Notes under the pieces: model-generated
What the model was told of the DNA's origin: nothing
The model's input: the letters and a program-made list of their open reading frames with translations, nothing else
Databases searched by the model: none
In this document: positions 1,703 to 44,924 of the stretch, piece after piece
How positions within the stretch are numbered: position 1 is the stretch's first letter
How the letters are laid out: every line of letters starts with the position of its first letter
Position numbers and translations under genes: made by a program
Origin: Candidatus Gastranaerophilales bacterium
Lineage (GTDB): Bacteria > Cyanobacteriota > Vampirovibrionia > Gastranaerophilales > Gastranaerophilaceae
Length of the DNA stretch: 64,000 nt
Direction: 5' to 3'
NCBI GenBank assembly: GCA_944325555.1
Contig: CALVAN010000007.1
Coordinates: 1 to 64,000, forward strand

Positions 1703-1850
1703 ATGTCCAAGTCCCCTTTATTGACTTTTATTATAAAACAAATTTATATTTTTGTGTATTACTCTTGTAACATTTTGTAAAACTAAGTGAATTAATTCTT
1801 TTAATCCGTTATATTTTTTTTTATTATCAGAAAAAGTATTGAGGTTTACT

Positions 1851-17000: not shown

Positions 17001-20000
17001 TTTAAGCGCATCGATTTGCTCAAGCAGAGATTCGTAATTAGCAGTATTTGTTTCGTTAATATTTTTCAGGCGTTCTTTTTCCGAATTTAACTCGCTAAGC
17101 GCCTGTTCAATTTTTGCGATTTCATCTTTTGCAGCCTGAGAATCTTTACCGGCCTCAATAAGAGTGCTGTCTTGTTTCTCGTATAAGTTGTCCTGTATTG
17201 TACCGGTTGCATTGCCGTCTTTATCGATTGTAAGATGCATAGAGTTGTTCTTGCCGGCAATAAGTTTTCCGTCAACTTTTACGTTATTTGAGGATTCATT
17301 TTTTACGGAAGTATAACTGCCGTCATCATGTATTTTTATCCCAAAAAGGAGTCTGCTTACTCTGTCGTAAACAATTTTTGAAGAAAGTTTTTCTTCCCCT
17401 CTGTCAAACACAACGTTAATATCTTTTTGAGAGCTTATTACCCCATTATTTTTAACATTCACTTTATTATTTGTAGTGAAATTAATACCACCATCCGCAT
17501 CGCCCGTTGCAATTGCAGCTTCTACATACAAATCCGCAAGCTGGTAAAGGTCTTGTTTGGAATTGCCCATAAAGTTGATATTTACGCTTGTATCCTCGTT
17601 AACACCTGCTGTTTCGGATTGAGCAAACAATTCGCCGGCAACGTTCAAAGTGTTGTTAATAGTGAGGTTAACCTCGCTGTTAACTGACGGATTACCGGCA
17701 AAGTGGTGTGTGTCAACTTCCGCAATAGAGCTTAGCTCGTTAGATGAGTTCATATTGATATCAACGTATTTGCCGCTGAGCAAACCGTCGTTTATGTTTA
17801 TATTGTTATTAACTACTGCGGTTACAATAGAACTTGCGTTATTATTTGCGGTAAAGCCGCTTCCGTCAGAGGTAACTTTCTGCTTAAAGCCCGTTGTACC
17901 GCTGGTTATATCCAGTTCGAGTTTGTTACCGGCATTGATTTCGGTATTTCTGTTAACATTGATACCGGCACCGATATTAAGCGTGTTGGAAAGTTTTGCA
18001 CCACCTGATACAACAAACCCGCCGGCATCGTCTGTTACCTGCATTTCGCTCGGAGTATATGCATCGTTTGAAACGTTAAATAGCGCGTCACCAGTTGTAG
18101 AAATTTTAGCATTGTTAAAATTCAATTCTGAAGTTGCAAGAAGTTCGTTTGTCAAAGGTCCGCCTTTGATTACGAACAAACCGTAATTGCCGCTTTCTTT
18201 AAACAGATAAGCACTTGTTAAGGTGTTAACATCAGCATTAACGGTATTTGCTACTATTCCGCTGCCGCCGTTGTTAAAGTTAACAATGTTTTTGGCGTTG
18301 TTTTCAACGGAATTTGTCGTAGAGCCGTGTGCAAGAGCAACAAGGCCTGCCGAGAAATCGTGAACATAAGCTTCTACAGTGTTGTTCATATCGGAATTTA
18401 CATCCAAAGTGTTTGCATTTATTGCACCAGATAATGTAGTTGTTGTTCCGTTGGCTATTATACTGTCCAAATTCATCACGCCGATATTGGCAAGACCTGC
18501 TCCGGAAGATGCGGCGTTGGATACTGCGGTTCTGTTGAGTTCGGAGTTTATATCAACATCATTTGCTTTGATAGTTCCGCCTATGTTATTGCTTATTGAA
18601 GAATCAACTTTGGATTCGATATTTAAACCCGAGCCGCGGACAAAGCCTATAGATTTGTTTACGGATTCATTCTCAGCCTTTGAGTTGTCTTTTACGTTAA
18701 CTGCAACCTTTTGCGCCTGTCCGTTTGCTGCATTATTTTGAATTGTTTCGTAAGTATTTATGCCTGAGGTTCCGGTTGCGTTTGCTTTGAGGCTTGTGCC
18801 GCTAAGCCCGATAACAGATGCGGAATTGTCGTTGTTTGTTATTTTGGCATTTCTGTCTATATCTATGTTCAGATTTGTGTTATCGGCATTGATATTGCCT
18901 GCGTCGATTTTGGCATTTGCACCCGCAACAGCTTCAACAACGGTAGCACTGCCGCCGACAAGGGAAATATCGCCGCTAAGCATCGAAGATGTTGCATTAT
19001 TTACACTTTGAGCAAGCATATCTACGTTTTTAGCCGTCAAAGTTGAGCCGTTTGTATTAATATTTGTGTCGCCGCCGGTTGAATTTGATACAACGAGAGC
19101 ATTTATTTCCAAACCATTTATGGAAAAGCTTTCCGAATCTGTTTTTGCTGTTCTGTTAAGTTTGGATTTTATATCGATTTTATTTTTTGCCGTAACGTTT
19201 CCACCTGTAATCTGTGCGTTTGCGTTACCGTTAGCTCTTGCGTCAACAACGGTTGTACCAAAAGAATAAAGAGCACCGGTTGCCTCTTTTGTGTTAACTG
19301 TTGCTGTTATGTTACCGCCTTCATCGGAATCCTTTGCTGTACCGGCATTAATTTTTACGTTGTTTGCATTAATTTTTCCACCGGCAATTCCCGAGTTAAA
19401 CGTTGCGTTTGATTCTGCCTTCTGGTAGTTGCCATCTGCAGAATACACACCGACTGAACCAACAACAACGTTGTTTATTGTGTTGATTCCTCCGGTTTGA
19501 GAGATGATGTTTAAATCATTTAACACGTCAACGGTTGAGTTGTTGTTAAGTGAAATCAAAGCATCTGAAACAGCCTTTGATACGGCGGTGTTTACAACAA
19601 CGGAAACATCAACTCCTGCTATACTTGCGCCGTACAATTCTGATTCAAGTCTGCTTGTATTTGTTGCTTTCACGTTTAAGTTGTCAGCATCAATATCGAC
19701 ATTGTTGCCTGAAATTAAAGATTGTATTGTATTTTCCGTATTTGCAACCGCAATATTAAGGTTAACACTTACACCGCCGACGCTTGCGGAAATTGCTTTG
19801 GAAACAATACTGTCCGATGACTCTGCCAGCACGTTTATGTCATTGGCAGAATTGACATTGGCATTTATAATTTGAGCAGTGGTGTTTGCTTTGTTATCAA
19901 AGTATGCAACGTTGCCTGCAACACCAACAAGAGCTGTTAATGTTGTTGCAACAGCATCGGTATTTGCTTTAACATTGGAATCTGCTTTTACAGTAACATC

Positions 20001-23000
20001 GCCGTTATCTTGGGCAACGACATTTCCGCCCGATATGGAAGCCGAGGTGTTGTATTTCATATCCGTAACAAGCACGCCTACTGCTGCGGCACCTGTTCCG
20101 CCTGCTGCAGTTGCGTTAGTAATGCTCATTGTATCGGAATCATAGCCTTTTAACGTGTTTTGGGCACTTACTTTAACTCCGTCATCACCGGTTGTTGTCA
20201 CGTTGGCGTTAATTTCAGCCTGTGTTCCGGCTTTGGCTTCACCTGATGTAAGATTATATGATCCGGCTAAAGTCTGATTTTGACCGTCTTTTTCATAGGT
20301 TATACCTTCTACAATACTGTTAAAATTATTGTTTGCCTGTGTGATTGATTCGTCTATTCCTGCATCTTTAAGGTTAGCATCCGTTGAATAGTCGGATACC
20401 TTTCCTCCGATTGAATTAACAAAGACTGTACCTGCAATTGCGCCAAATCCTGCCGCAGCCGCTGTAATACCGCCTTCGTCAAGACCAATAATTGAGTTTG
20501 AATTAACCTCTACGCTGTTGGCATTAATTTGACCTTGCGAAGTGCTTAACAATTGAGCTAAAACAGCATTGTTAATTACGTTTACGTTAACATTTGCACC
20601 GACAGCCCCAATGCCGGAACCACTGACAAGTCCCAGGTTATTTTGCATTAATATTTCGTCTTTAGCGGCAACGCTTACTTTTCCAGAGACATTCATTGTA
20701 TTGTTTTCGGCATCAATGTATGCTTTTGCGGTATTTTCAAGAACATTAACAGTTGTATTCACACCTGCAGCATCTGTGCCCGAAGCACCAATACCAATAT
20801 TATTATTTGAAATATCCTGTTTGTTATTTGCATTAACCGTTAATGAATCAACATCAGTCGACGTCTTTGTTATATTTGCATTCAAATTATTGGTCAAAAC
20901 AGACACAAGTGTATTGGCAGAAACTGCGGCTCCAACACCATTTGCTGCAATTGAAGCGGTTGTGTTGTCAATATCAGAGTTTTGTATTGCCGATACGGAC
21001 ACACTTCCCCCTGAGATTGATGAATCCGCAATATATGCATTTACATTATTTTTGATAACGTTTACTATACCGTTTACAAGTACTGACGCACCTACACCGT
21101 TTATCCCGATTGATCCAATAATGCCATCCAAATTAAGGTTAGCTGTTGAAGAAACCGAGGTTGATTGTGCATTTGTAAAGCTTACGTCAGAGATATAAGA
21201 ATTCAATTCGTTATCAAAAACATTTACTCCTGCAAATCCGGAAACACTAGCGCCCACGCCGCTGCCTGACACACCTAAAATAGCAGAGATAACATTAATA
21301 TCCGATTGTGCATCTACTGTAGTTTGTGCATTATCAACGGAACCGCCTTGAATATAAGCGTTTGTGCTGTTAGTAAACACATTCACAATAGGAGCAAGGC
21401 TGACACCGGCACCCGTTCCTGCTACCGCACCTGCTGCAAGAACATCTGTTGTTGTAACTGTATTTTTAGCTGTAACCTTAACTGTTTGCGCATCATTAAT
21501 ATCAGTATTTTCAACTTTTGCAGTTACTTCATTTGAAATAGTATTTACGTTTGTAATAGCCGTAACAGCTGCAGTACCAGACGCAGCTGTTGTAAATATA
21601 ATTGTATTTAAATTAAAAGCATCATCAGCCGTAACATTTAGAGAACCATTGACTGTCGAATCAGTTACAGATGCAATAGTAGTACCGGAATAAATATTTG
21701 TTACTCCGTTCACACCGACTCCGGCAACACCTGCAGCAGCAACGCTTAACGCTGCATCATAAGTTGTCATTGAAGAATCCGCATCAACATTTAAGCCTTT
21801 AAGTGTTGATATTGTTGAATTATCGACATATGCATTAACAGCAGTAGTTACAGAATTTGCAATGAGCGTAGCACTAACACCTGCACTACCTGCTGCACCT
21901 ATAGTTATAACACCTACCAGAGGAATAAGTTTTGATATATCGTCAGAAGAAACAGAACCTTTGTTTATTAGTGACTGCAGTCCTGTATTTTGATCTTTAT
22001 GAGCCCCGTTAAAACTGTTGTTTGCTGTTATTGTTACACTATCATTTGAGGTTACAGTTGTGTTTTCAATACCGGCATTCACTTCCGATGCCATAATATT
22101 GGCTACAGCTACTGCGCCTACACCCGCCGCACCTGCTGCAGAGGTAACAATCACATTAGCTTGGAAGTTCTGATCATCATTCGCAGAAACTTTCACATCA
22201 CCGGTTGTATTAATATTACCTGATTTTTGGCCGTCAGTGCCGTCTTTACCGACAATTGAATTTACTTTATTAGCAAGTACATTTGTAAAAATTGCCCCGC
22301 CAACAGCTGCAGAACCGGCTGCAGATACTGCAACATTTAATGCTTCAGTATCCATAGAATCAGCGGCAGCAACATTTAATCTGTCAGCAAATATATTTAC
22401 ACCGTTTCCTACATATGCATTTGTTTCATTTACAATTATATTGGAATTGATGGAACCTTTAACAGCAGCTGTACCTGCGCCGCCAACTATAGCCATCATT
22501 GATTTATAAATCTGTTCGGAGTTTGCATTAACATTAACATAACCAACTCTTGAAGAGTCAGAACCGACTTGTGCACCGTTTTTGATACCTGCATCAACCG
22601 TGCTTACATTTACATTAGAAAATATAGAACCTCCTACAGCGGCAGTGCCTGCTGCAGTAATACTGCCTACGATAACATCGGCAACTGTTTTGTTAGAAGC
22701 AAAAACGTCAATGTTTCCTGCCTCTTGAATTGCGACGTTAGAACCAATATAAGCATCCACATCATTTATAACATTTTTAGATATCAAAGATCCGGAAACA
22801 CCAGCAGTGCTTGCACCGGCAACATCAAAGGTCATATCCCAGTTCTGGTAATCGGTATCTTTTTTCATATCATAATCAGGATTGGACAACTTTTCTGTCA
22901 GAGCGGCAGCTGTAATTGAGCCGGGCGTTTCTTCCCCAAAAATATTTTTAGCAGAAGCATCAACTTTTATATCTCCGCCTTTTGCTATTGTTGCGTTATC

Positions 23001-26000
23001 GATATGAGCGTCAACGTTTTTTAAATAAACATCAGTAAGTATTGAACCGCCGACAGCTGCAGTTCCGCCGGAAGCAGCAAGCACTCCGCCTCTGCTTCTT
23101 GATTGGGTGTTATCAGAAGCTGTTACTTCAACGCCGTTTGCGGACACATTGTTTTTTTTGCCGTTTTCAGCGTCAATTTTTGCGGTTGTGGAATTTTGTA
23201 CCACATTAACCCCGACATTTGCTGCAGCACCGCTTCCGCCTGCACTGATGGCGGCAGCAACGGGGATGACATCAATTTTTTCATCGGTTGTTGCTTTAAC
23301 GGACAGTTTTCCTCCGGAAGTTATATCAGAACTCATTAACTGAGCGGTATTATTGCTCAACAAGGTGTTTGACATTACGTTTGCACCGAAAGCATTTCCG
23401 CTGCCGACAGCAATAGAGTCGGCATTTGTTATGCCCTGTATGGAGTTGTCGTAATCGGAAAGTACATTTAAGTTTCCGTTGTTCGTTATTGAAGAATCAG
23501 CTACGGAAGCCGCAATGTCATTTTGAATTACGTTAACAATACCGTTTGCCGTCACGGAAGTTCCTTCCTTGGCTTGAACTCCCATATTTACGGCGAGGAA
23601 TTTTAAATCCTCGTTATTGTATGCGTTAACGTTAACATCGCCGCCTGTTATGTTTGAATTGTTTGTAACGGAAGCATTTATGTTGTTGTTAATAACGCTT
23701 ACAATAGCACCGACTCCGACCCCGACTCCACTGGCTGCCGTTGAAAAGCCCAGAGCACCTGCAATATTTCCGTTAGAGAAATTATTGTTTGCTGCAACGT
23801 TAACATTATTCGCCGCAGCGATGGTTGAATTGTCAATGTTGGCATTAATTGTATTATTGATTACATCGGTAGCCATTGCACCGGAGAAGCTGTATCCGTT
23901 TGCTGTACTTGCAATAACACTGCCTCCAACACCGACAGAGATTAAGTCTTCTGTTTTTTGAGTTTTATCCTTGTTTGCCACAACCTCAACCGATTTGGCA
24001 TTTTGAATGTTTGAATTTGTTATTTTAGCATTGGTTTCTTTCGTTATAAGGTTTAAGTTTCCACCCATGCCGGCACCGACAGAAGTATTACCTGACTGAG
24101 CCTTTGTTGAACCTGTCGAGCCAGAAGAACCACCTGTTCCTGTTCCGCTGCTGCTTGTATTAACTGAAAGACCTCCGGCACCTTTATACGAGGTTGAGTG
24201 GTTTTCTGCATCAACATTAACAGCAATACTATTTGAATTATTCTGATGTTTCACAGTTGCACCGTCAATCTGTGAAACAACTTTATTTTCGAGTATATCC
24301 GTGTTGAAAGACCCGCCTGCGGAGACCTGCGTTGTTGCATCATCCTGACTTGCTTTTGAAACACCAACACCTATAGCCACCTGTATATTGTCATTGTTTT
24401 CCTCTGCTTTAACATTGAGCTTGTTATCAGATGTGCCTGTATAAGTAATTTGGCTGCCGTTCAGCGAAGCAGTTGTTTGGTTTGTATTTTCAATTAAATT
24501 AACAGCGGCTCCGGCTCCGACTGTTGCTGCTTTTGCAACACCGCCGCCTACATTAAGAACTTTTGTTGCTTGATTAGCTTCTACGTTAACATCATTACCG
24601 ACTTTTATATCAGCATTACCAATTTCTGCTTTTACTTCCGTATTATTAAATTGGACATTTACAGAACCTGCTGCAGCAGCTGACATATTTTTGGAATGTC
24701 CTTTTTCCGAATCCAAATTGTCAAGGTTAGCGGCTTCTTTACCTGTTGAGCCGGCATATTTAACTTCATTGCCTTTTTTATCTTTTAAAACATTACCGTC
24801 TTTATCGCAATATTGACCTTTATCATTAGTAGTATATTCTTTGCCTTCAACATTTATTATCGGGTTTCCGTTTTTATCAAGTTTTGCAGATGAAGATTTT
24901 GAAGTGTTAGCATTTGCTAATAAATTATCAGCTTTTGTTGCTGCATTATCAGTTTTGTCCTGCCAAGAGTTAAGTAAATTTGTTTTACCTGTGGCCGAAT
25001 TAGCTGCAACATTATTTTTATCTGTATCTTTTTTCTCTTTCTTAAGTTTGACACCGCCGGCAAATGCACCCGCAATTGCAATATTTAACTCTTGGTTTAA
25101 AGTATCGGCTTTAACATTTAAACCTTCTGTTAGTTCAATAGTTGTATTATCAGCAATATAAGATTGAACCCCACGGGATATATCAGACACAACAACTGAT
25201 GCACCTACTGCAACACCGCTTGAACTTTGCGGATTATTTTGAGAAGAGGTACCTGTATTGCCACCCTCAGATGGTACTGTAACTTGTCCTGTTTGGTTTG
25301 CAAGAGCACCTGTTATTGTTATATTGGAAACGCCGTCAGTTATTGTTGACGGAGCATCAACGCTAATCAAACCAGTATCCTCGTTCAAATCAAGGAACTG
25401 ACGGACCTGAGGCGTGGACAAATCGATGTCATCCGTTATTAATACATCATCTCTATCTGCAAACGGATCAGAAATCAATTGGTCTTTAGCTCTTGTTGCT
25501 GTTGCTATGGATGCACTTCCTGCAATAACATCAAGATTTTTTGCCTTTATGCTTGTACCTTTGCCAACGGAAGATTCGGTAGTACCATTTATCTCCTGTA
25601 CAACAGTGCTGCCAGAAAATGCAAGTCCGTTCTGCGTCGAGCTGCCGGTAATAGCCGTATTGATATATGATTGCTGGCTTGCAGAATTGAGTTTTACATC
25701 TCCTGTTGAATCAATAATTACATTTTCACCAATTTGAGCTTTTGCATTATTCGTAACATAAGTTACAATACCACTGCCGCCAACACCGCTTGATTCACCG
25801 GAAGAACCGCTTATTTTCCATAGTTTAGACAAATCACCGGCTGCGTTATTTTGCACAATTTTATTTGCCGCATTTACTATAACATTTCCTGTGTCTGTGA
25901 TTTGTGTACCATTCCCGATTCTTGCAACAGTATCATTTACAACTTCGGAATACACAAATGAACCGGCAAGACCTACACCACCGTCTTTAACTTTTGATGT

Positions 26001-28532
26001 ACTTTGCGCCCAGTTATTAGTAAAACCTTTTAAGCCGAGATGAGAAGTAGCCCCCGATTGTTTTAAACCGAGTCTAATATCTTTTATATCCGCCAGTATT
26101 TCACCTGACTCATTAGTAAATAATGTAGTCAAGCCGGAAAAATCCCAAGGGGTATTTGTATTTATATCAAAAGAGCTTACTCCGTCAACAATATTACCGC
26201 TACCATCAACCAAATCATTACCGAGTTGAGCCAGACTCAATAAAAATTCGAAGGTTGCTTCGTTCATCGGCTGTTCTGTTGTTGCACTGACATTAAGTCC
26301 GTTTTTAGCCTTAATTTTTGCTGAATTTGTTCCGTCGGAATCTTCAATTTGAGCATGAGCAGCATTATTCTGTTCATTAACAATTACAGCCACACCGGGA
26401 GCCGGAACATAACTGGCTGTTTTATCATCACCTGTTTTAGCAGTAGAACTGTTAACGCTCAAGTCTACTATATTGGCATTAACATTAACTTTGTTTGCAG
26501 TAATATCCGCTTTATTACCAATAGTTGCAGAAGCACTGTTGTTGACAGTATTAACTACTACCGATCCGCTGGCATTAGGAGCAGCATCAGCGATAAATGT
26601 CCCGAGAAGTCCGCTGATTTTTTCCTGTATTTGTTTAACAGCTTTTTCTGCTTTGCCTAAATTTCCCGGAAGCGGAAGTTTGCTTCCTTTATCTTCTGCA
26701 ACAGAAGCAGTAGAACTGAGGGAAGCAACATGTAAATTCTGCGCATTGACATTAACATCTTCTGCGGCATTTATGTTCCCATTAACCTTTGCTTCAGTAT
26801 CAATATCAGCATTTCTTACTATTACACCTGCGGAAAACGAGGGTAAACTGTCGCTTTTATACATAGTAGTTTTAGCGGCTATATTAACAAAATCATTTGT
26901 TACATTAACAGCTTGCACATCAACATTTTTGGCCTTAACAGTTGCTCCGCTGTCAATAACAGCACTTGTGTCAGCATCTGTTGTTGAATTAAGCACAACA
27001 ACCTGCCAGTTAGGCAAAATAGCCTGATCCAGCCATGTTGTAGTATTTTTAATTTTTGCCCACAGAGTATTTTTAGATGTTGCATTGGCAACAAAATTTT
27101 CACCTGCTTCTATTTTAGCACCGTCTTGAACGTGCACGCTTGATTCTGTTTGTGTGCCGACTGCATAGTACATTTCCGCAATATCTGCAATTTGAACTTT
27201 TTTAGTTATTTTTAATGGTTTTACTTTTATATTGGAAGTAGCAATAGCCAGTGAGTTCAGTAAAACATCACCGGATGCAATAAGCTCCGCACCGCTGCCG
27301 ATTGTAACGGTTGCCTTTGAGCGTGCACCTTCCCAGTTTACATAGCCATTCGTCAGCAGTTGTGACAATGTTGTTGCATCAGGATTTGTAATGTAATTTA
27401 AAGACGGTGCACCTTTTTTAGCGTTGTATTCTACTTTTGTGGTTGCGAAAACATCAATATCATGAGCCTTTAGAATTGCATCTTGAATTAATACCGAAGA
27501 TGAATTATTTTCAAATGAATCCGGATTCACAAAATCATCACTGGGTTTAGGAAATAAAGAAGCAATTAAAGAAGAATCTTCCACTTCTGTAACATTAGAG
27601 GGAACATCCTCATTTGTTATTTGTTTTATTGATTGAGCCTTTATGACAATCTTGCCGTTTTGGTTTTCAAAACCGGCACCGTTTTGCACATCATTGTTAA
27701 CAAGGGCATTGAATAATTTTCCGGCAGCTTCGGTTGTTTCAAGCTTTGCGTTAACCGCCGTATTGGAATTTGTTACAGCATTATTATTTACACCCGCAAG
27801 AATCCCTGCTTTGTCGGCATTTGGATTGTTAGGATCTTTTTGCACTTTTATATGTTTGCCGACAAGTTCAACATCACCTCTGGCAATGATTTTACCGTTA
27901 ACATCAATGTTACCCTCTTGGTCGGATATTTTTAAAGTATTTAAATCAAAAGCAACCTGTTCGTTATCGGTTCTTTGTGCGGTAGAGTAATCATCTTTAA
28001 CATACGTATCATTAACAATATTCAAAACAGGATCAGCAGGTGTTTGATGATTTTGGAAATTCGGTGTATATTTATTTTTCATTGTGTCGTACACATTTTG
28101 AGTAGGCGCAATTGTAGTTAATGCTCCCACATTCAATACACCCGAAGCGCCGATTACCATCCCTTGCGGAGAAACAAAAATTGCATGCCCGCCGATATCT
28201 CCGTTACTGAGCACACCGTTTAAAATACCGTTAATTATAATTCTGCTGTCAACAAGGTTAACAAATTTGTTTACGTCAATTTGACCGTTTTGCAATGCAA
28301 AAATAAGGTTGGCGACATCGCCTTTGCTTAAATTAAAATTATCATAGTGTCTAAAACCTGTATCGCCGTGGACAAAATCGGGATGAATATTATACTGTCC
28401 GTTCTCCCCCGGTCTAACACCTGTGATGTCCGTTGCTATTGCCGGCAATATCATGGTCTGCTGCATAAAAAACAAAGATGTTAATACAAATGCAACAAGT
28501 TTTTTTACACTCAAATTAAATTTTAAAAACAT
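11085..28532 (-). CDS. Giant LktA-family filamentous adhesin (TpsA exoprotein) ending in a PilZ domain
   Basis: A 5815-residue two-partner-secretion exoprotein. Residues 1-33 form a signal peptide ending PAIA, followed by a TPS secretion domain (VRPGENGQYN, NFNLSKGD, INGILNGVL, FVSPQGMVIGASG) that closely resembles leukotoxin LktA-type filamentous adhesins. Most of the rest is Asn/Ala/Ser/Thr/Val-rich with repeating alternating-hydrophobic units (VNVNA, GNAxVNVI, GALISGTVTN), consistent with a very long right-handed beta-helix on the cell surface. A Lys/Asp-rich insertion lies at about 24690-25060, a coiled-coil hairpin insertion at about 16270-17170, and a short-repeat stretch at about 13400-14850. 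The C-terminal 100 or so residues are a PilZ domain. The start ATG follows AGGGAA at good spacing. The partner TpsB gene is divergent at 28712. The reading frame is uninterrupted. Likely roles are adhesion, aggregation or toxin-like contact; the precise role is unknown. Confidence 0.92.
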   Translation of the reverse strand: MFLKFNLSVKKLVAFVLTSLFFMQQTMILPAIATDITGVRPGENGQYNIHPDFVHGDTGFRHYDNFNLSKGDVANLIFALQNGQIDVNKFVNLVDSRIIINGILNGVLSNGDIGGHAIFVSPQGMVIGASGVLNVGALTTIAPTQNVYDTMKNKYTPNFQNHQTPADPVLNIVNDTYVKDDYSTAQRTDNEQVAFDLNTLKISDQEGNIDVNGKIIARGDVELVGKHIKVQKDPNNPNADKAGILAGVNNNAVTNSNTAVNAKLETTEAAGKLFNALVNNDVQNGAGFENQNGKIVIKAQSIKQITNEDVPSNVTEVEDSSLIASLFPKPSDDFVNPDSFENNSSSVLIQDAILKAHDIDVFATTKVEYNAKKGAPSLNYITNPDATTLSQLLTNGYVNWEGARSKATVTIGSGAELIASGDVLLNSLAIATSNIKVKPLKITKKVQIADIAEMYYAVGTQTESSVHVQDGAKIEAGENFVANATSKNTLWAKIKNTTTWLDQAILPNWQVVVLNSTTDADTSAVIDSGATVKAKNVDVQAVNVTNDFVNIAAKTTMYKSDSLPSFSAGVIVRNADIDTEAKVNGNINAAEDVNVNAQNLHVASLSSTASVAEDKGSKLPLPGNLGKAEKAVKQIQEKISGLLGTFIADAAPNASGSVVVNTVNNSASATIGNKADITANKVNVNANIVDLSVNSSTAKTGDDKTASYVPAPGVAVIVNEQNNAAHAQIEDSDGTNSAKIKAKNGLNVSATTEQPMNEATFEFLLSLAQLGNDLVDGSGNIVDGVSSFDINTNTPWDFSGLTTLFTNESGEILADIKDIRLGLKQSGATSHLGLKGFTNNWAQSTSKVKDGGVGLAGSFVYSEVVNDTVARIGNGTQITDTGNVIVNAANKIVQNNAAGDLSKLWKISGSSGESSGVGGSGIVTYVTNNAKAQIGENVIIDSTGDVKLNSASQQSYINTAITGSSTQNGLAFSGSTVVQEINGTTESSVGKGTSIKAKNLDVIAGSASIATATRAKDQLISDPFADRDDVLITDDIDLSTPQVRQFLDLNEDTGLISVDAPSTITDGVSNITITGALANQTGQVTVPSEGGNTGTSSQNNPQSSSGVAVGASVVVSDISRGVQSYIADNTTIELTEGLNVKADTLNQELNIAIAGAFAGGVKLKKEKKDTDKNNVAANSATGKTNLLNSWQDKTDNAATKADNLLANANTSKSSSAKLDKNGNPIINVEGKEYTTNDKGQYCDKDGNVLKDKKGNEVKYAGSTGKEAANLDNLDSEKGHSKNMSAAAAGSVNVQFNNTEVKAEIGNADIKVGNDVNVEANQATKVLNVGGGVAKAATVGAGAAVNLIENTNQTTASLNGSQITYTGTSDNKLNVKAEENNDNIQVAIGVGVSKASQDDATTQVSAGGSFNTDILENKVVSQIDGATVKHQNNSNSIAVNVDAENHSTSYKGAGGLSVNTSSSGTGTGGSSGSTGSTKAQSGNTSVGAGMGGNLNLITKETNAKITNSNIQNAKSVEVVANKDKTQKTEDLISVGVGGSVIASTANGYSFSGAMATDVINNTINANIDNSTIAAANNVNVAANNNFSNGNIAGALGFSTAASGVGVGVGAIVSVINNNINASVTNNSNITGGDVNVNAYNNEDLKFLAVNMGVQAKEGTSVTANGIVNVIQNDIAASVADSSITNNGNLNVLSDYDNSIQGITNADSIAVGSGNAFGANVMSNTLLSNNTAQLMSSDITSGGKLSVKATTDEKIDVIPVAAAISAGGSGAAANVGVNVVQNSTTAKIDAENGKKNNVSANGVEVTASDNTQSRSRGGVLAASGGTAAVGGSILTDVYLKNVDAHIDNATIAKGGDIKVDASAKNIFGEETPGSITAAALTEKLSNPDYDMKKDTDYQNWDMTFDVAGASTAGVSGSLISKNVINDVDAYIGSNVAIQEAGNIDVFASNKTVADVIVGSITAAGTAAVGGSIFSNVNVSTVDAGIKNGAQVGSDSSRVGYVNVNANSEQIYKSMMAIVGGAGTAAVKGSINSNIIVNETNAYVGNGVNIFADRLNVAAADSMDTEALNVAVSAAGSAAVGGAIFTNVLANKVNSIVGKDGTDGQKSGNINTTGDVKVSANDDQNFQANVIVTSAAGAAGVGAVAVANIMASEVNAGIENTTVTSNDSVTITANNSFNGAHKDQNTGLQSLINKGSVSSDDISKLIPLVGVITIGAAGSAGVSATLIANSVTTAVNAYVDNSTISTLKGLNVDADSSMTTYDAALSVAAAGVAGVGVNGVTNIYSGTTIASVTDSTVNGSLNVTADDAFNLNTIIFTTAASGTAAVTAITNVNTISNEVTAKVENTDINDAQTVKVTAKNTVTTTDVLAAGAVAGTGAGVSLAPIVNVFTNSTNAYIQGGSVDNAQTTVDAQSDINVISAILGVSGSGVGASVSGFAGVNVFDNELNSYISDVSFTNAQSTSVSSTANLNLDGIIGSIGINGVGASVLVNGIVNVIKNNVNAYIADSSISGGSVSVSAIQNSDIDNTTASIAANGVGAAVSANTLVSVLTNNLNANITKTSTDVDSLTVNANNKQDISNNNIGIGASGTDAAGVNTTVNVLENTAKAYIDAENNTMNVSGKVSVAAKDEILMQNNLGLVSGSGIGAVGANVNVNVINNAVLAQLLSTSQGQINANSVEVNSNSIIGLDEGGITAAAAGFGAIAGTVFVNSIGGKVSDYSTDANLKDAGIDESITQANNNFNSIVEGITYEKDGQNQTLAGSYNLTSGEAKAGTQAEINANVTTTGDDGVKVSAQNTLKGYDSDTMSITNATAAGGTGAAAVGVLVTDMKYNTSASISGGNVVAQDNGDVTVKADSNVKANTDAVATTLTALVGVAGNVAYFDNKANTTAQIINANVNSANDINVLAESSDSIVSKAISASVGGVSVNLNIAVANTENTIQSLISGNNVDIDADNLNVKATNTSRLESELYGASIAGVDVSVVVNTAVSKAVSDALISLNNNSTVDVLNDLNIISQTGGINTINNVVVGSVGVYSADGNYQKAESNATFNSGIAGGKINANNVKINAGTAKDSDEGGNITATVNTKEATGALYSFGTTVVDARANGNANAQITGGNVTAKNKIDIKSKLNRTAKTDSESFSINGLEINALVVSNSTGGDTNINTNGSTLTAKNVDMLAQSVNNATSSMLSGDISLVGGSATVVEAVAGANAKIDAGNINADNTNLNIDIDRNAKITNNDNSASVIGLSGTSLKANATGTSGINTYETIQNNAANGQAQKVAVNVKDNSKAENESVNKSIGFVRGSGLNIESKVDSSISNNIGGTIKANDVDINSELNRTAVSNAASSGAGLANIGVMNLDSIIANGTTTTLSGAINANTLDVNSDMNNTVEAYVHDFSAGLVALAHGSTTNSVENNAKNIVNFNNGGSGIVANTVNADVNTLTSAYLFKESGNYGLFVIKGGPLTNELLATSELNFNNAKISTTGDALFNVSNDAYTPSEMQVTDDAGGFVVSGGAKLSNTLNIGAGINVNRNTEINAGNKLELDITSGTTGFKQKVTSDGSGFTANNNASSIVTAVVNNNININDGLLSGKYVDINMNSSNELSSIAEVDTHHFAGNPSVNSEVNLTINNTLNVAGELFAQSETAGVNEDTSVNINFMGNSKQDLYQLADLYVEAAIATGDADGGINFTTNNKVNVKNNGVISSQKDINVVFDRGEEKLSSKIVYDRVSRLLFGIKIHDDGSYTSVKNESSNNVKVDGKLIAGKNNSMHLTIDKDGNATGTIQDNLYEKQDSTLIEAGKDSQAAKDEIAKIEQALSELNSEKERLKNINETNTANYESLLEQIDALKLQLAMAEYIQGVEDSGKISQNDFKNSIVTMLENNNVANAETVANQLLDYYTMAVDDKTNLPIYSFNTSDGNNIILKYAVAENGSYIIENGHYKLADIEGYTINYENNIPVSVTPDGTSSVINVGTLTFDDYLAGLGVGEDALNSIKTSLGGMKIDSQTATIKTDSGSKEVTFLTTNGQIIYDSKYVDNMQSVSSEITAAENSANTLNETISSIADDLNDIKNQIKENEARKDNIAQNGLGEFKAENGSYIFKDINATSGTINIQANKGKSEVSGSGQIIMSLADVLINNYSNYNLIFSDITVAGGVGSFVVDGKTVTDNPYNGITISTIGSADNKGGITINNWYDQNDPDNNTALGVLSSNMIFNGVINTGVGNVNIYNESGDVTINNDVTSNKLTVNVAQGSFTQDTKGKEYVLNSGDTLFAGKNINIIASKIKVEGNMQAGIADKNITITQDMLEHAVKETVKQVVTDASGNPIKDANGNVQYKEVETGRLLVNLALGRDGSEGSKQSDYMYNTNNIKALYDPKTNTVELFGVKVTDEANINLTATSSDADAVYVSDKSSIKYANGYGEINIDNQTNAHLVVNGLENNKISGAVTYNGSTELPEYGTKIIEETKFGIHQIDEFPYIAIGEYTVETEKTVGFGAKPQNTADTALTNGKTTVDTSKNNTTGDLIVNGLISSGNLTENEAGLLLQTNGNLVINNRTASEDSDYQVPTIDTKGDIVLNKLTDNGGVLIQGLIQNSGNTTVNNAGAGGITIAAMGFIDNENGKVNINNNNGNIEISGKINNTTENDFVGEKDVVITNNSAAGGIITAVGSEIKNHNGKVTVTNNGALGINAQGNILATKGDINITNNKGDMLLGKDSLISLNDGYTNQSNNINILNSETAASMTIAGAVNNYGTGDIDIQNKGTGAATIAQTAVVSNNIGNIIVTNENSKLTIAGKTQNQNGDTQITNNGSEGALISGTVTNNGDNAKLTINNTKGNVTVSGTVSNDSKTNEDNLFISNSGEGGALISGTVTNLQGNTIVGNTAGALEISGKMTNSQGNTQITNSGKGGALISGIVSNTGNAGKLTIDNTVGGITITNTGSVTNTSNTNEDNLLVQNSGDGGISIAGKVVNTNQGNLKVVNNNANSSAITTAAGSLIQNTNGVLNITNEGANGISVAGTVNNIKGASNIVNNNTSDTSAIKIATTGRVTNNDGTIYIKNYGTKDVGLDIEGIVNAIKQNIEIINENSDIEIGEYDSSNDFYVNAQNGNIIISQTNGDILNGIDDTDTENKNQNHDLGNKDQAYKTLLSTGGNLTMNVEGGNIGSDTHALDGKESGFGINASTRDYTESINVNVAGVVNANASNNDNALINLRAKDSNLNVNNITSDGNVMLTAVDWKQADARPAPSDESYYHGYSVVNSATDKSKANVTGRNISVISSDNIGTNGNSFTYNQLEGGSISAMAENDLYIKGMGLNDNIWQLITKRGNMGLEFSGDAVIRELTAGKDLKIVSKGANLTIYDLGKTTNLEDNDDILFPHDGILMSSVSPETVDIRVLDVNPDTRVNPNEANSTLNIYNAYVKGQSNGTPDVTLRADNIVAHAYEAPSSSVNNVARPDGFDATEGRLYANDYTDADADKNLKATGFNTVGSGSKLVFDIQGVSPDDVVNAGAQQGDRNYKPQEVIETWEIFNNPIGFKDTVYKAKDVTLSLNSASTSPTDNRGMEISKIYTDNAYVDTKDLNMHISDAFITNYGEFRNGNRGGAGGGHYISDDYRWLTIVDNDYFRNITNLYGIPVTSQLYTKLTGSFGLNMGNVIALETQAPVVHYNPYEVILLPRTENSFYRLTYKDDKIQKTTTTPDFADIDKSTYKPTKRDSIRFTVKQGDGYVNISDKKKKKEKTPRIIAIENISRGGLAVVHDGSLRKGERFVIDIDYHNIKASPEVEVVRVVNDRAGLKFINLDKATANKILYMNMFMAENEDKAPQMSKN
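11100..11445 (-). other. PilZ domain at the C-terminus of TpsA
   Basis: The last 115 residues or so contain RDSIR (about 11416-11440, pattern RxxxR) and, after about 35 residues, ENISRGG (about 11313-11333, pattern [D/N]xSxxG). These are the two c-di-GMP-binding motifs of PilZ domains. The intervening and following strands (FVIDIDYH, EVEVVRVV, AGLKFINL) match the PilZ barrel. A Lys-rich loop lies between the motifs. Placing this normally cytosolic domain on an exported adhesin is unusual. Confidence 0.85.
13400..14850 (-). repeat. Protein-level tandem repeats in TpsA (short beta-helix units)
   Basis: This part of tpsA encodes many diverged copies of a short unit built on variants of ALISGTVTN, GNTQITNSG and GKLTIDN. 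One larger block containing TNEDNL occurs twice. Repeats this close could recombine and change protein length. The underlying DNA has diverged between copies, so it is not a simple-sequence repeat. Confidence 0.7.
16270..17170 (-). other. Coiled-coil insertion within TpsA
   Basis: About 300 residues whose composition differs from the surrounding beta-helix. Two Lys/Glu/Leu-rich heptad stretches (including EIAKIEQALSELNSEKERL and DDLNDIKNQIKENEARK) flank a compact middle part. This suggests an antiparallel helical hairpin protruding from the fibre. After it the Asn/Thr-rich beta-helix pattern resumes. Confidence 0.65.
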
Positions 28533-40800: not shown

Positions 40801-42777
40801 ATGAATAATATTGCGATTTCACCGTTTTTGTATGTTGTAAAAAAACACATATCTTTCGGGACAAACCCTAATGACTCTTATCAAAAACAAATCCCAAAAC
40901 CCATTGTAAAAACACCCAAAAAAGATCATCCGGTTGCGCTTGAGGATGTTTCGTTTTTTGTTGCAAAAAAAATTGCGGAAAACGCAAACAAACTAGGGCT
41001 TTCCCGTACGGAATACCTTATACAAAACATAAAATCTCTTGCCTACATCCCGCAGGTTATTCCCGAAGATTCAAAAACAGCCATTGTAGGCAGAACAAAT
41101 GTTACCACTCTCATAGACGGCGGACAGATTTTTGACAAAGCCGTTGAATACATAAAAAGTGCGCAGGATTCCATCCAGATAGAAATGTTTGAATTTCAGC
41201 ACCCTTCAATTGACGGACACAAATGGCCGTCCAACGGCGCAGAAGCCGTTGACGGTTTTGAAGAACACAACAGCCTGCTGCCTATGATTATCAAAAAGAA
41301 AAAAGAAAATCCTAACCTTAAGGTACAGATTATTCTTGATGCGCACAAATGGTACATGGACGGAACAGGCGCCCCGACAAGGCATTACAACAATCAGGAC
41401 ATGATAAGATACCTCAAGCTCAACGGCATTGATGTTGTTCCTTATCCCCGTCCGGCGCAAAGCGGCGCAGCGCTGCAGCACGTAAAACTCGTTGCTGTTG
41501 ACGGTAAAAAACTTATCATAGGCGGTATGAACTGGGGCACGCATTCCACGGCAAACCACGACGCCTGCGTTGCATTGGAAACCCGTGACGGATACAAAAA
41601 CTCGGAGGTCGACAACATCCTTACTGAAATTTTCAACAAAGACTGGGCTTTCTCCTGGCAAAGGCTCGGGCGGACAAAGATTGTGGCAGGTCCTTTAACA
41701 GAGGACGAACAGCAGTTCTACAAAGGGTTGAACAAGGAAATAAAAGACGAAAACGTAGAGTATATGAAAATAGTGGGCAAACTCTATGACAATGAAAAAG
41801 ACAGAAACCGCTACGACGAAAAAGACCTTTCCAAACTGGATATTATAAAAAGAAACCCCGTTGAAAATCCTGCAATAAAAGTTCTTTCAACAAAGCCGAG
41901 AGAACTCGCCTATATAGGAGAGCAGGGCTCCGAATCCATCCGACAATACGTCATGGACAAGGTTAAAACGGCAAAGAAAATAAGAGCCGAGCTGTTTGTA
42001 CTCTCGGATAAAGAGATTATCCAAACAATAATTGACAGGGTGCACAAGGGCGAGTTAGACGCAAAAATCATTGTCGACCCGTCCATTATCGAAGAGTTTC
42101 CGTATTGCAACACCGCATACCAAAAACTTGTGGAAAACAACATTGATGTCAGACAGTACAAAACCGATGCAAAAATTACCCAGCGCATGCACGGAAAATG
42201 GGCCGTGTTCGACGACAAAGAGGTGCTTATCGGTTCTGCCAACTGGTCTGCAATGGCAATGAACCAGAACCTTAAAAAAGGGCAAAGAGAAGATTACGAA
42301 AAATACACGGAAGAAATAAACCGAGAGATTGTCGGCTACTTAAAAACCGTGGAGAAATACGAGGACGCCCTCGGCCTGCCGCCGTTGATAAGGAAAAAGC
42401 TGGATTACAAAGAGGTGCTTTTAAGACGCAGAAAAATAAAAAAAGCTGTCAACGAAATTAACGAAACAGGCTCAGCAAAAATAAGATTGCAGGACAAAAC
42501 GTACGAATTCGGCGTAAAAGACCGTTCGGACTTAAACACAGTAAAAGGCTATTACAAAATAATTATTGACAGAAACAACGCAAAAGAAAAATACAAACGA
42601 GGCAACAATGAGGCTGCAATTGCCTTTGAAAAGCCGATTCTTGCAAGGGTGTTTTTAAAACAGTTTGAAAAGGACTGGAAACACTCGGAATCCGAATACG
42701 AAAAAGTTAAAAACAGGTTCTATGAGGCTCCGCCAATGATAGCAGGCGGCACTTCAAAACTGGATTTGGTAGGTTAA
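40801..42777 (+). CDS. Phospholipase D-like protein with N-terminal SFG motif
   Basis: A 658-residue PLD-superfamily protein with two HKD motifs. The first is HVKLVAVDG near residue 227 with GGMNWG downstream. The second is MHGKWAVFDDKEVLIGSANWS near 464. Two motifs in one chain fit phosphatidyltransferases, phospholipases or nucleases of this superfamily; the substrate is open. ISFGTN lies at 17-22, the position of the SFKG motif in neighbouring proteins. I chose the ATG at 40801, since GGAAG at 40788-40792 precedes it at good spacing; the GTG at 40786 would overlap that site. There is no signal peptide or membrane segment. The exonuclease gene starts two bases after its stop. Confidence 0.85.
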   Translation: MNNIAISPFLYVVKKHISFGTNPNDSYQKQIPKPIVKTPKKDHPVALEDVSFFVAKKIAENANKLGLSRTEYLIQNIKSLAYIPQVIPEDSKTAIVGRTNVTTLIDGGQIFDKAVEYIKSAQDSIQIEMFEFQHPSIDGHKWPSNGAEAVDGFEEHNSLLPMIIKKKKENPNLKVQIILDAHKWYMDGTGAPTRHYNNQDMIRYLKLNGIDVVPYPRPAQSGAALQHVKLVAVDGKKLIIGGMNWGTHSTANHDACVALETRDGYKNSEVDNILTEIFNKDWAFSWQRLGRTKIVAGPLTEDEQQFYKGLNKEIKDENVEYMKIVGKLYDNEKDRNRYDEKDLSKLDIIKRNPVENPAIKVLSTKPRELAYIGEQGSESIRQYVMDKVKTAKKIRAELFVLSDKEIIQTIIDRVHKGELDAKIIVDPSIIEEFPYCNTAYQKLVENNIDVRQYKTDAKITQRMHGKWAVFDDKEVLIGSANWSAMAMNQNLKKGQREDYEKYTEEINREIVGYLKTVEKYEDALGLPPLIRKKLDYKEVLLRRRKIKKAVNEINETGSAKIRLQDKTYEFGVKDRSDLNTVKGYYKIIIDRNNAKEKYKRGNNEAAIAFEKPILARVFLKQFEKDWKHSESEYEKVKNRFYEAPPMIAGGTSKLDLVG

Positions 42778-42779
42778 GT

Positions 42780-44522
42780 ATGAAAATTTCCGCTGTTACG
42801 TTTTATACAAACAACAAAACAAATTTGCCCGTACGCAAAAATTCTCCCGATACTCCCGCAGAAAACGGCGAGAGAACAATCGATGTTGATATACCTTATT
42901 TTACTCCGGTCTTAAACAGGTTTGTCCCCACTTTTAAGGGCGACTTTTTCGAAAACAACTTCACCAGAAAAGTTGAGGGCAAGGAGTATCAGGGGCTGGG
43001 ACTTATGGAAAAGAACGAAATAGGCTCTGCCGAGTGGTACGATTTTTCAAAAGTCGGGTGGGAATATTTAAGCAAAGAGCCGCTCGATTGGAAAACAGCA
43101 ACCCCGAGGGATTTTTACGTATTCTTGCAGGCAAATGCGCTGGCAGAGGGCTACGAGTCTGCCTGGGTGCGGCGATTTAACTACACAAACCGTAAAAAAA
43201 TGCTGGCGACCTCTCATTCAATAGATTCACGTACTGTAAAAGAGCCGCCATCAAAGGATTTGAAATACGACATATACAAGGACAAATCTTTTGCCTCTAA
43301 CTTGGAGGAGCTTTTAGATACAAGGCGTCACAAGTCACTGGACAAGCCGATTACTGACGAAAACGGAAACCTTTGCCTTGATGCGGTTGTGTTCGATACG
43401 GAAACAACAGGCACAAACACCTCTGACGAAAGCAGACCTCTTGATAAAATCATTCAAATAGGCGCAATTCAGGTTAAAAAAGGAAAAATCGTTCCCGAAA
43501 GCGCAATGAGTCAGCTTATTAACCCGGAAATTCATATACCTGAAGCCGCCTCAAACGTTCACGGCATTTATGACGACGATGTAAAAAATGCTCCGGTTAT
43601 GGAACAGGTGCTAAAACCGTTTGTTAACAACTATTTAAACAAGAAAAACGGTATAATCGTCGCTTACAACTCGCAGTTTGATATTACAATGCTCAACAAC
43701 GCAATACGTGAGCATAACGGCTATTCGGCAGACGAGCTGAAGCCCAAAAGATACTTTAAAGTAATAGATCCATTTTTGCTGATGCAAAGAATCCACCCTT
43801 ATGTCGGTGCGTCAAAGCGGCTGTCCAACCAGTACAGATACTTCTTTGCAAAGAATATGGAAAATGCGCACGATGCATTTGCCGATGTAAAAGGAACGGT
43901 GGACATACTCAAATACACGCTTTATTATCTTGACAAACACCGTGTTGACAAGACAAAACCGCTGACGATAAGAGAGGTTCTGCTATTCCAGAATGGTTTT
44001 GAGGTTCCGAATATTGATATTCCTTTAGATGCGCAGGGCTGCAACGCAAACGTTAATTTCCGCACTTCTTACAGACCGGTATCAATAAGCGTGGACAACT
44101 ATCACAACGGCTATATGCTTACAAAGCAGGATATAAAAGAGCTTGAGCCGATAATCGGAGAAGAAAACGCCAAAAAGCTCCGTAACGAGGTTCAGAACGA
44201 AAAAATTGACATGAAACAGCCTTCGGGGCTGCCGATTAACGCTGCGGAAACAAGACCGACTCCGGACGGAAAAGGTATGGAAAATGCTTTTTACGTAATG
44301 AAGAATAATTTTAAAAAGGTTCTGGAATTTGCCAAAATAGACGCCTATCAGGACAAATCAAAAGAGGAAATCATTGAACTGATAACGGACAAAGCAAAAA
44401 ATTACATACACAAAGATTCCATTGACTTTTGGATGAAAAACCCCAACCCCTTTGACATAAAAGAGGGCAACGACCTGCCTGATTTTGAAATTTCCAAAAG
44501 GGTTATGGAAGAAGCTATATAA
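42780..44522 (+). CDS. DEDDh 3'-5' exonuclease (DnaQ-like) with SFKG-type motif
   Basis: A 580-residue protein. The exonuclease domain spans about residues 200-380: VFDTETTG with Asp and Glu of motif Exo I, a middle motif in AYNSQFDITML, and HDAFADV near 364-370 as Exo III with the catalytic His and Asp. This is the DnaQ/epsilon type, acting on DNA or RNA 3' ends. About 200 extra residues on each side have no domain I recognise. PTFKGD at 50-55 is the local form of the N-terminal motif. It starts two bases after the PLD gene and so is co-expressed with it. A terminator-like hairpin follows the stop. It is too long and too decorated to be the replicative proofreading subunit. Confidence 0.85.
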   Translation: MKISAVTFYTNNKTNLPVRKNSPDTPAENGERTIDVDIPYFTPVLNRFVPTFKGDFFENNFTRKVEGKEYQGLGLMEKNEIGSAEWYDFSKVGWEYLSKEPLDWKTATPRDFYVFLQANALAEGYESAWVRRFNYTNRKKMLATSHSIDSRTVKEPPSKDLKYDIYKDKSFASNLEELLDTRRHKSLDKPITDENGNLCLDAVVFDTETTGTNTSDESRPLDKIIQIGAIQVKKGKIVPESAMSQLINPEIHIPEAASNVHGIYDDDVKNAPVMEQVLKPFVNNYLNKKNGIIVAYNSQFDITMLNNAIREHNGYSADELKPKRYFKVIDPFLLMQRIHPYVGASKRLSNQYRYFFAKNMENAHDAFADVKGTVDILKYTLYYLDKHRVDKTKPLTIREVLLFQNGFEVPNIDIPLDAQGCNANVNFRTSYRPVSISVDNYHNGYMLTKQDIKELEPIIGEENAKKLRNEVQNEKIDMKQPSGLPINAAETRPTPDGKGMENAFYVMKNNFKKVLEFAKIDAYQDKSKEEIIELITDKAKNYIHKDSIDFWMKNPNPFDIKEGNDLPDFEISKRVMEEAI

Positions 44523-44627: not shown

Positions 44628-44924
44628 ATGGATAAGGTTATTGCTGTTTATATATTATCAAACTATGAAGGCACTACATTTTATGTTGGAGTTACTTCTG
44701 ATTTAAAAAAGAGAATTTATGAACATAAAAACAAATTGTTCAAAGGTTTTTCCGCAAAATATAATTTAGAAAAACTTGTTTATTATGAAATCTCGGACTC
44801 TATTGAAAGTGCAATTGAAAGAGAAAAACAAATAAAAAGGTGGCACAGGCAATGGAAAATTAATCTTATAAAAGAACAAAATCCACAGTTTAATGACCTG
44901 AGTTCAAATTGGTACAGATGCTGA
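44628..44924 (+). CDS. Single-domain GIY-YIG endonuclease
   Basis: A 98-residue protein consisting almost entirely of a GIY-YIG domain: AVYILSNYEGTTFYVGVTSD (the Y-I-L and Y-V-G variants of the GIY and YIG strands), KKRIYEHK with the conserved Arg, LVYYE, and REKQIKRWHRQWKINLI. This is the small UPF0213/YhbQ-like group rather than an intron-encoded homing enzyme. It probably cuts or binds DNA with little added specificity domain. It sits alone between inverted repeats, with no co-directional partner closer than the exonuclease gene, from which it is separated by a terminator. Confidence 0.85.
   Translation: MDKVIAVYILSNYEGTTFYVGVTSDLKKRIYEHKNKLFKGFSAKYNLEKLVYYEISDSIESAIEREKQIKRWHRQWKINLIKEQNPQFNDLSSNWYRC

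What the first reader, a model, noticed from the sequence alone, without database searches (positions are those of the whole stretch)
40801..44522. Paired phospholipase D-like and DEDDh exonuclease genes with SFKG leaders
Two bases separate the genes and each carries the leader motif. A lipid- or DNA-cutting enzyme coupled to an exonuclease, both with long unassigned extensions, resembles a toxin or defence pair. No immunity gene or sensor is visible, so this remains a question.
Basis: partly seen in the sequence, partly recalled or inferred. Interest (0 to 1): 0.55.

Follow-up and report, generated by a model that had tools for sequence, protein, structure and literature searches.

The report
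Leader-tagged nuclease pair, gut Melainabacteria
Two neighbouring genes in an uncultured gut bacterium encode DNA-cutting-type enzymes that were side by side in every relative where we found them, often next to a third enzyme that destroys DNA building blocks, and all three carry a similar unusual front-end tag, which hints at a dedicated DNA-dismantling kit kept apart from the cell's normal machinery.

Summary
The pair is real. Gene A (40801-42777) is a two-HKD phospholipase-D-superfamily protein; gene B (42780-44522) is a DEDDh exonuclease with two extra domains; 2 nt separate them. The organism is a Candidatus Gastranaerophilales bacterium. A and B occur in the same 24 of 59 genomes searched and are adjacent in all 24; B follows A in 31 of 31 named loci (overlapping set). 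Their divergences mirror each other (rho 0.96) and the main catalytic residues are invariant. New: a third gene, a second, leader-bearing dGTPase, lies beside the pair in 22 of 31 named loci; within the genus it occurs in 15 of 15 genomes with the pair and 1 of 8 without. In the window's genome it is on another contig. All three start with a variable leader that ends at a conserved Phe; neither window protein contains literal SFKG. Neighbours are not visibly defence genes. Best reading: a leader-tagged DNA/dNTP-dismantling kit, probably routed out of the cytoplasm (0.45). A flagellum-like type III apparatus, kept in all 11 flagellin-less relatives, is a candidate route, but that link is inferred and one test went against it. 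Substrate, toxicity and export are untested.

The parts
40801..42777 (+). Gene A: two-HKD PLD-superfamily protein, 658 aa, with N-terminal leader
   Evidence: ORF and frame; PLDc_2 6.4e-30, two stretches; full-length orthologues in 24 of 59 genomes; VIA-align Z 32.0 (7e0m), 30.9 (PLD3), 30.4 (PLD4)
40801..40875 (+). Leader of A (residues 1-25, variable), containing SFGT (18-21, 40852-40863)
   Evidence: 27% against 86% mean pairwise identity in 15 genomes of the genus; F19 nearly invariant; pLDDT under 50 for residues 1-25
40945..41043 (+). Weak ribbon-helix-helix-like stretch of A (residues 49-81)
   Evidence: NCBIfam VapB_Myco model 6.8e-4, 20.1 bits against cut-off 60; 14 of 23 members at E up to 0.1; two helices in the model, no strand
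41479..41502 (+). First HKD motif of A (H227, K229, D234)
   Evidence: H227 and K229 invariant in 23 of 23 rows; the Asp is not
42190..42213 (+). Second HKD motif of A (H464, K466, D471)
   Evidence: H464 and K466 invariant in 23 of 23 rows, D471 nearly invariant
42780..44522 (+). Gene B: DEDDh exonuclease-family protein, 580 aa, with N-terminal leader
   Evidence: RNase_T 1.3e-21; orthologues in the same 24 genomes; PolC exonuclease Z 18.0, DnaQ Z 16.3
42780..42944 (+). Leader of B (residues 1-55, variable), with TFKG at 51-54 (42930-42941)
   Evidence: 26% against 80% identity in 15 genomes of the genus; F52 invariant in 22 rows; pLDDT under 50 for residues 1-54
42945..43379 (+). N-terminal extra domain of B (residues 56-200), no family assigned
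   Evidence: mostly helical, pLDDT mostly 61-94; outside the Pfam match
43386..43907 (+). DEDDh exonuclease domain of B (residues 203-376; D206, E208, D301, H364, D369)
   Evidence: all five residues invariant in 22 of 22 rows
43962..44519 (+). C-terminal extra domain of B (residues about 395-580)
   Evidence: modelled with good confidence except around 481-500; no Pfam match over cut-off

Best explanation
A and B form a conserved two-gene operon that works with a leader-bearing second dGTPase (D) as a DNA- and dNTP-dismantling kit. A is proposed to cut or chew nucleic acid with a composite double-HKD site (close folds include the PLD3/PLD4 5' exonucleases), B to remove nucleotides from 3' ends, and D to hydrolyse dNTPs. 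The variable leader ending in a short motif around a conserved Phe (typically [ST]F[KGA][GAST]) is proposed to be a sorting signal that separates these enzymes from leaderless housekeeping paralogues and takes them out of the cytoplasm, as effectors against other cells or as scavenging enzymes. Shown: linkage, co-inheritance, families, invariant catalytic residues, purifying selection, leader pattern. Inferred: nucleic acid as A's substrate (about 0.65), leader as sorting signal (about 0.6), export (about 0.45), the flagellum-like type III apparatus as route (about 0.25).
For: Mirror divergence rho 0.96 over 231 pairs of 22 genomes. dN/dS 0.02-0.05 without the leader in the 5 of 8 comparisons where it could be computed; dS is above 1, so rough. 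H/K of both HKD motifs and all DEDDh residues invariant. D passes the dGTP_triPase cut-off, 173 and 166 against 152 bits, keeps GHDxGH in 13 of 13, lies beside the pair in 22 of 31 named loci (20 divergent, L097 codirectional upstream, L102 codirectional downstream), and in the genus occurs in 15 of 15 genomes with A-B and 1 of 8 without (p 3e-5). A leaderless dGTPase paralogue is also present in most genomes. Leaders of A and B vary and are disordered in the models; motif concentrated at N-termini in a 400-kb sample. In the first 70 residues only one A, one B and one D reach a 19-residue hydropathy above 1.2, so no general Sec-type signal. Nearest sequences with solved structure for A are NucT nuclease (4e-5) and mitochondrial cardiolipin hydrolase.
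Against: No export, toxicity or enzymatic data. Fold does not settle A's substrate: the top match 7e0m is titled phospholipase D, and vaccinia F13 (30.2), PLD2 (27.9) and phosphatidylserine synthase (25.8) are also close; the cardiolipin synthase ClsB model matches 20 of 23 members below its cut-off (best 5e-10), much as NucT (21 of 23) and DrmC (23 of 23) do. D is not beside the pair in the window's genome (contig C16), in 11 of 24 genomes of the first set or in 9 of 31 named loci (two on 8-kb contigs); outside the genus only 2 of 9 genomes with A-B in the first set have D, and G054 has D without A-B. The leader is also on kinase-like and AAA-like proteins and on proteins with hydrophobic stretches, so it need not mean secretion. 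Enrichment of [STN]FK[GAS] was weak in G027 (2.6-fold, p 0.09; a broader pattern 2.6-fold, p 0.009) and not significant in G157, G058, or 100-kb samples of G034, G040, G041 and G060.
Confidence: 0.45

Rival explanations
1. Anti-phage defence: the enzymes act inside the cell, degrading phage DNA and dNTPs or killing the infected cell.
For: Patchy presence (15 of 23 genomes of the genus); flanks differ between most genomes; PLD, DEDDh and dGTPase domains occur in defence-related models (PADLOC DrmC 5.9e-12, DEDDh 8.3e-29; an anti-phage dGTPase model exists).
Against: 112 neighbours show no run of defence families (no control); DrmC and anti-phage dGTPase cut-offs not met; no sensor recognised; A has no relative in the viral contigs scanned and only one partial match each in phages (59% of A, 27.9% identity) and plasmids (28%, 26.9%); the leader is shared with unrelated proteins.
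Confidence: 0.17
2. Nutritional or DNA-uptake role: leader-routed surface or periplasmic enzymes that break down environmental DNA.
For: Nuclease, exonuclease and nucleotide hydrolase suit scavenging (general knowledge); NucT nuclease is the best-scoring named PLD model (43.5 bits) and the best solved-structure match by sequence.
Against: dGTPases act on dNTPs, not on the dNMPs that an exonuclease releases (recalled); no general Sec-type hydrophobic stretch in the leaders; NucT cut-off of 297 bits not met.
Confidence: 0.2
3. A is a lipid enzyme (cardiolipin synthase-like or true PLD) and its pairing with an exonuclease reflects something else, for example envelope stress.
For: PLD1/PLD2, F13, Streptomyces PLD and phosphatidylserine synthases are strong structural matches; the one phage homologue, 27.9% identical, is annotated clsA; ClsB model matches 20 of 23 members.
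Against: Window A scores only 14.9-25.7 bits with cardiolipin synthase models; constant linkage to an exonuclease and frequent linkage to a dGTPase.
Confidence: 0.15

Closest known systems
PLD3/PLD4 (5' exonucleases) and other two-HKD PLDs
   Same: Bilobal double-HKD fold over residues about 94-637 (Z 30-32, rmsd 2.9-3.1 over 321-327 residues for the top rows)
   Different: 12-15% identity; leader, weak ribbon-helix-helix-like stretch and a long insert in the second lobe; substrate unknown
DnaQ / PolC exonuclease domain / TREX1 (DEDDh 3'-5' exonucleases)
   Same: Fold and all five DEDDh residues
   Different: Two further regions of about 145 and 185 residues and a leader; in NCBIfam the best model (86.9 bits) is far below its cut-off of 495
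dGTP triphosphohydrolase (TIGR01353)
   Same: Partner D passes the subfamily cut-off
   Different: Carries a leader before the enzyme domain; a leaderless paralogue exists in most of the same genomes
DISARM DrmC and other defence PLDs
   Same: HKD PLD domain
   Different: Cut-off not met and no run of defence genes among neighbours
Export signals of early flagellar subunits (N-terminal hydrophobic signal plus gate recognition motif; PMC8983047, passages seen)
   Same: Layout: short hydrophobic start, spacer, short motif further in
   Different: Motif differs, and some leaders here are under 15 residues, shorter than the separation of at least 26 residues described there

Membership tests
DEDDh exonuclease (RNase_T, PF00929) | Profile match over the curated cut-off | tested here: met
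   78.3 against 24 bits
DEDDh exonuclease (RNase_T, PF00929) | Asp, Glu, Asp, His, Asp catalytic residues | tested here: met
   D206, E208, D301, H364, D369 invariant in 22 of 22 rows; assignment of the roles follows the family pattern (recalled)
DEDDh exonuclease (RNase_T, PF00929) | 3'-5' exonuclease activity | not testable with these tools
   no biochemistry
PLD superfamily (PLDc_2, PF13091) | Profile match and two HKD motifs in one chain | tested here: met
   104.1 against 27 bits, two stretches; H227/K229 and H464/K466 invariant in 23 of 23 rows
DISARM DrmC (NF038319) | Curated cut-off | tested here: not met
   40.7 of 133 bits
NucT nuclease (NF010492) | Curated cut-off | tested here: not met
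   43.5 of 297 bits
Cardiolipin synthase ClsB (NF008427) | Curated cut-off | tested here: not met
   25.7 of 281 bits for window A
Anti-phage dGTPase (NF041026), partner D | Curated cut-off | tested here: not met
   139.5 and 134.3 of 400 bits
dGTP triphosphohydrolase (TIGR01353), partner D | Curated cut-off and HD motif | tested here: met
   173.1 and 165.8 against 152.35 bits; GHDxGH in 13 of 13
Defence island | Neighbouring genes enriched for defence families | tested here: inconclusive
   112 of 113 neighbours scanned (one 2611-aa ORF left out): 11 PADLOC families at E up to 1e-10, each in one member; no control set, so enrichment was not measured
Type III secretion substrate | Secretion dependent on the apparatus | not testable with these tools
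   only correlations available
Non-flagellar type III apparatus (second FHIPEP copy) | SctV (TIGR01399) curated cut-off | tested here: not met
   590.1 of 692.25 bits; FlhA cut-off also not met, 698.5 of 772.1

The most novel reading that the evidence does not exclude
Gut Gastranaerophilales use a stripped-down flagellar-type export apparatus (export gate, ATPase, rod-family proteins, kept in relatives without flagellin) to send out a class of leader-tagged proteins, and A-B-D is one cargo set: a PLD3/4-like, a TREX/DnaQ-like and a dNTPase enzyme that together strip DNA and dNTPs from a target cell, or blunt DNA sensing by the host.
Probability: 0.15. Interest if true: 0.92.

Novelty: new variant of a known kind. 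Interest (0 to 1): 0.58.

Why it matters
The enzymes belong to known families, but I found no paper on the fixed pairing, the recurrent dGTPase partner or the shared leader (searches in one open-access library, most results seen as listings only). If the leader is a sorting signal, it would turn a list of unannotated proteins in a common but uncultured gut lineage into a predicted secretome, and could give a function to the partial flagellar gene sets that earlier work judged unable to make a functional flagellum (PMC4040986, passage). The pair is a good first test because its activities can be assayed.

Tried and rejected
Defence: 112 neighbours scanned, nothing recurrent, no control set. Phage or plasmid origin of A: no relative among viral contigs scanned with two peptide patterns; one partial match each in phages (Microcystis phage MaAM05, 59% of A) and plasmids (28%). 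Type IV secretion: the VirB4 family is in 0 of 59 genomes. Contractile injection: phage-sheath family in 10 of 59 genomes, too rare for a general route. Toxin-antitoxin: the ribbon-helix-helix-like stretch lies inside A and is weak; no separate antitoxin gene was recognised; not pursued.

Type III link: by my reading of the rows the second FHIPEP copy is present in all 11 flagellin-less genomes of the order (flagellin), which lack the first copy; G058 has neither. But no second copy is listed for G026, G039, G049 and G053 (75-88% complete), of which G026 and G049 carry A-B; and G157, which has only the second copy, shows no leader enrichment. The leader does not follow the published gate-recognition spacing. 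In the control sample G060 one of three patterns gave 2 N-terminal against 0 other matches (p 0.05), which shows how noisy small samples are. A Sec signal was looked for by hydropathy only. The extra domains of B were barely tested by the fold search and were not folded alone, so nothing is said about their novelty. Promoter and terminator scans were not informative. The first pattern for a dGTPase motif was badly written (1 of 13) and was corrected (13 of 13). D's leader variability was judged by eye, not measured.
Full report
What is there. Gene A (40801-42777, 658 aa) and gene B (42780-44522, 580 aa) lie on the + strand with two bases between them. A carries two PLD-like domains (PLDc_2, 6.4e-30); B carries a DEDDh exonuclease domain at residues 203-376 (RNase_T, 1.3e-21). 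The window is contig C7 of a 2.32-Mb genome in 60 contigs. Named records that hold the pair are mostly labelled Candidatus Gastranaerophilales.

Is it a real pair? In 59 genomes (the window's own and 58 relatives) full-length orthologues of B and of A were found in the same 24: 15 of 23 in the genus, 2 more in the family, 7 more in the order; other hits are short matches to the catalytic domains. In all 24 the genes are adjacent and codirectional, from 62 nt of overlap to a gap of 49 nt by my ORF starts; in G055 both genes are in pieces, and in G026 B is cut by the contig end. A second scan gave 31 named loci, with B after A in 31 of 31. Pairwise identities of A and B rise and fall together (rho 0.96, 231 pairs; 0.89 over 105 pairs within the genus). 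dN/dS without the leader is 0.02-0.05 in the 5 of 8 comparisons where dS could be computed.

Are they intact enzymes? In A, H227/K229 and H464/K466 are invariant in 23 of 23 rows; the Asp of the first motif is not. In B the five DEDDh residues are invariant in 22 of 22 rows. The model of A (mean pLDDT 76.1) matches two-HKD structures: 7e0m, titled phospholipase D, Z 32.0; PLD3 30.9; PLD4 30.4; vaccinia F13 30.2; PLD2 27.9; phosphatidylserine synthase 25.8. Fold alone does not choose between DNA and lipid. By sequence A is nearest to NucT in solved structures (4e-5), and DrmC, NucT and ClsB models all match most members below their cut-offs. The model of B (81.7) matches PolC exonuclease (Z 18.0), DnaQ (16.3) and TREX1 (13.7), mainly over residues 183-405. 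A also has a weak ribbon-helix-helix-like stretch at 49-81.

A third partner. Flanks differ between most genomes, though a few close relatives share them. One gene recurs: a leader-bearing dGTP triphosphohydrolase, D (TIGR01353, 173 bits against a cut-off of 152). It is beside A-B in 13 of 24 genomes of the first set and in 22 of 31 named loci, in three arrangements: divergent upstream (20), codirectional upstream (L097) and codirectional downstream (L102). Within the genus D is in 15 of 15 genomes with A-B and in 1 of 8 without (G012; p 3e-5); relatedness of the genomes is not corrected for. Outside the genus the link is looser: of 9 further genomes with A-B, 2 have D, and G054 has D without A-B. 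In the window's genome D is on contig C16. A leaderless dGTPase is present as well in most genomes.

The leader. In 15 genomes of the genus the first 25 residues of A and 56 of B show 27% and 26% mean pairwise identity, against 86% and 80% for the rest; they are disordered in the models. Both hold a conserved Phe near the end. The window proteins read SFGT and TFKG there, not SFKG. In a 400-kb sample of the window's genome [STN]FK[GAS] is 15-fold enriched near the N-terminus (16 against 3), with the caveat that the motif was picked after a look at that sample. Other carriers include a protein with a protein-kinase match (2.5e-8), an AAA protein, and several with no Pfam match. Elsewhere the enrichment was weak (G027) or not significant (G157, G058, and 100-kb samples of G034, G040, G041, G060), although single leader-like starts are seen in G027, G034, G040 and G041.

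Where might they go? VirB4 is in 0 of 59 genomes and the phage sheath family in 10 of 59. FHIPEP, the export-gate protein of flagella and type III systems, is in 58 of 59. In the window's genome one copy passes the FlhA cut-off; a second falls below both the FlhA and SctV cut-offs and sits with a FliI/SctN-type ATPase, a FliH-type protein and a FliF-type ring protein. Flagellin is absent from 11 genomes of the order, and by my reading all 11 keep the second copy and lack the first. Of these 11, the 8 that I checked, with 6 other genomes, keep FliP and rod-family proteins. Earlier work described partial flagellar gene sets in this order as unable to make a functional flagellum (PMC4040986, passage); another paper speaks of partial sets and one likely motile species (PMC5877343, passages). 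Near the second cluster in this genome lie leader-type genes, and a gene pair there (121 and 337 aa) has relatives beside A-B in G018 and, for the larger one, in G020 (30% and 35% identity); the 337-aa protein has a sub-threshold RelA_SpoT match (0.013). These are leads, not proof: G157 has the second copy without leader enrichment, and G026 and G049 carry A-B with no second copy listed, in incomplete assemblies.

Defence? Of 113 neighbouring ORFs within three genes of the pair (23 genomes, D left out), 112 were scanned: 11 PADLOC families at 1e-10, one member each, among them AAA- and HTH-type models. No matched control was run. The pair does not meet the DrmC cut-off, nor D the anti-phage dGTPase cut-off.

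Verdict. The pair is real, conserved and linked to a third enzyme of DNA metabolism; all three wear a leader that looks like a sorting signal. The most likely reading is an exported or otherwise segregated DNA/dNTP-dismantling kit (0.45). The resemblance to the human set PLD3/4, TREX1 and SAMHD1 rests on fold matches for the first two and on recall for SAMHD1; it is a suggestion only.

Noticed in passing
window 185-1702 (-), 1839-3131 (+), 4389-5741 (+): Three further leader-bearing genes (the first with a protein-kinase match, 2.5e-8); their relatives lie downstream of A-B in G001 and G014.
   Followed up: partly
L116 13139-19815 and start of L117 (window genome, contig C6): Second flagellar-type export cluster (ATPase, FHIPEP copy 2, FliH-type, FliF-type) with leader-type genes on both sides.
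   Followed up: partly
G000:C16:10451-11509 (L142 10082-11542) and similar in many relatives: A 486-aa protein matches only positions 301-654 of FHIPEP: a stand-alone FlhA-C-terminus-like protein, about 8 kb from gene D.
   Followed up: no
L116 10491-11501 (-); L060 2737-3828; L062 2074-3168: A protein family, one member with a sub-threshold RelA/SpoT match, beside the second export cluster in G000 and near A-B in G018 and G020.
   Followed up: partly
window 44628-44924 (+): Small GIY-YIG protein just downstream of B (1.9e-16); no relative of it in the fetched flanks of the other genomes' pairs.
   Followed up: no
window 11085-28532 (-): A 5815-aa ORF with a signal-peptide-like start.
   Followed up: no
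Microcystis phage MaAM05, MW495066.1 146178-147206: A phage of 274 kb encodes a PLD 27.9% identical to A over 59% of its length.
   Followed up: no
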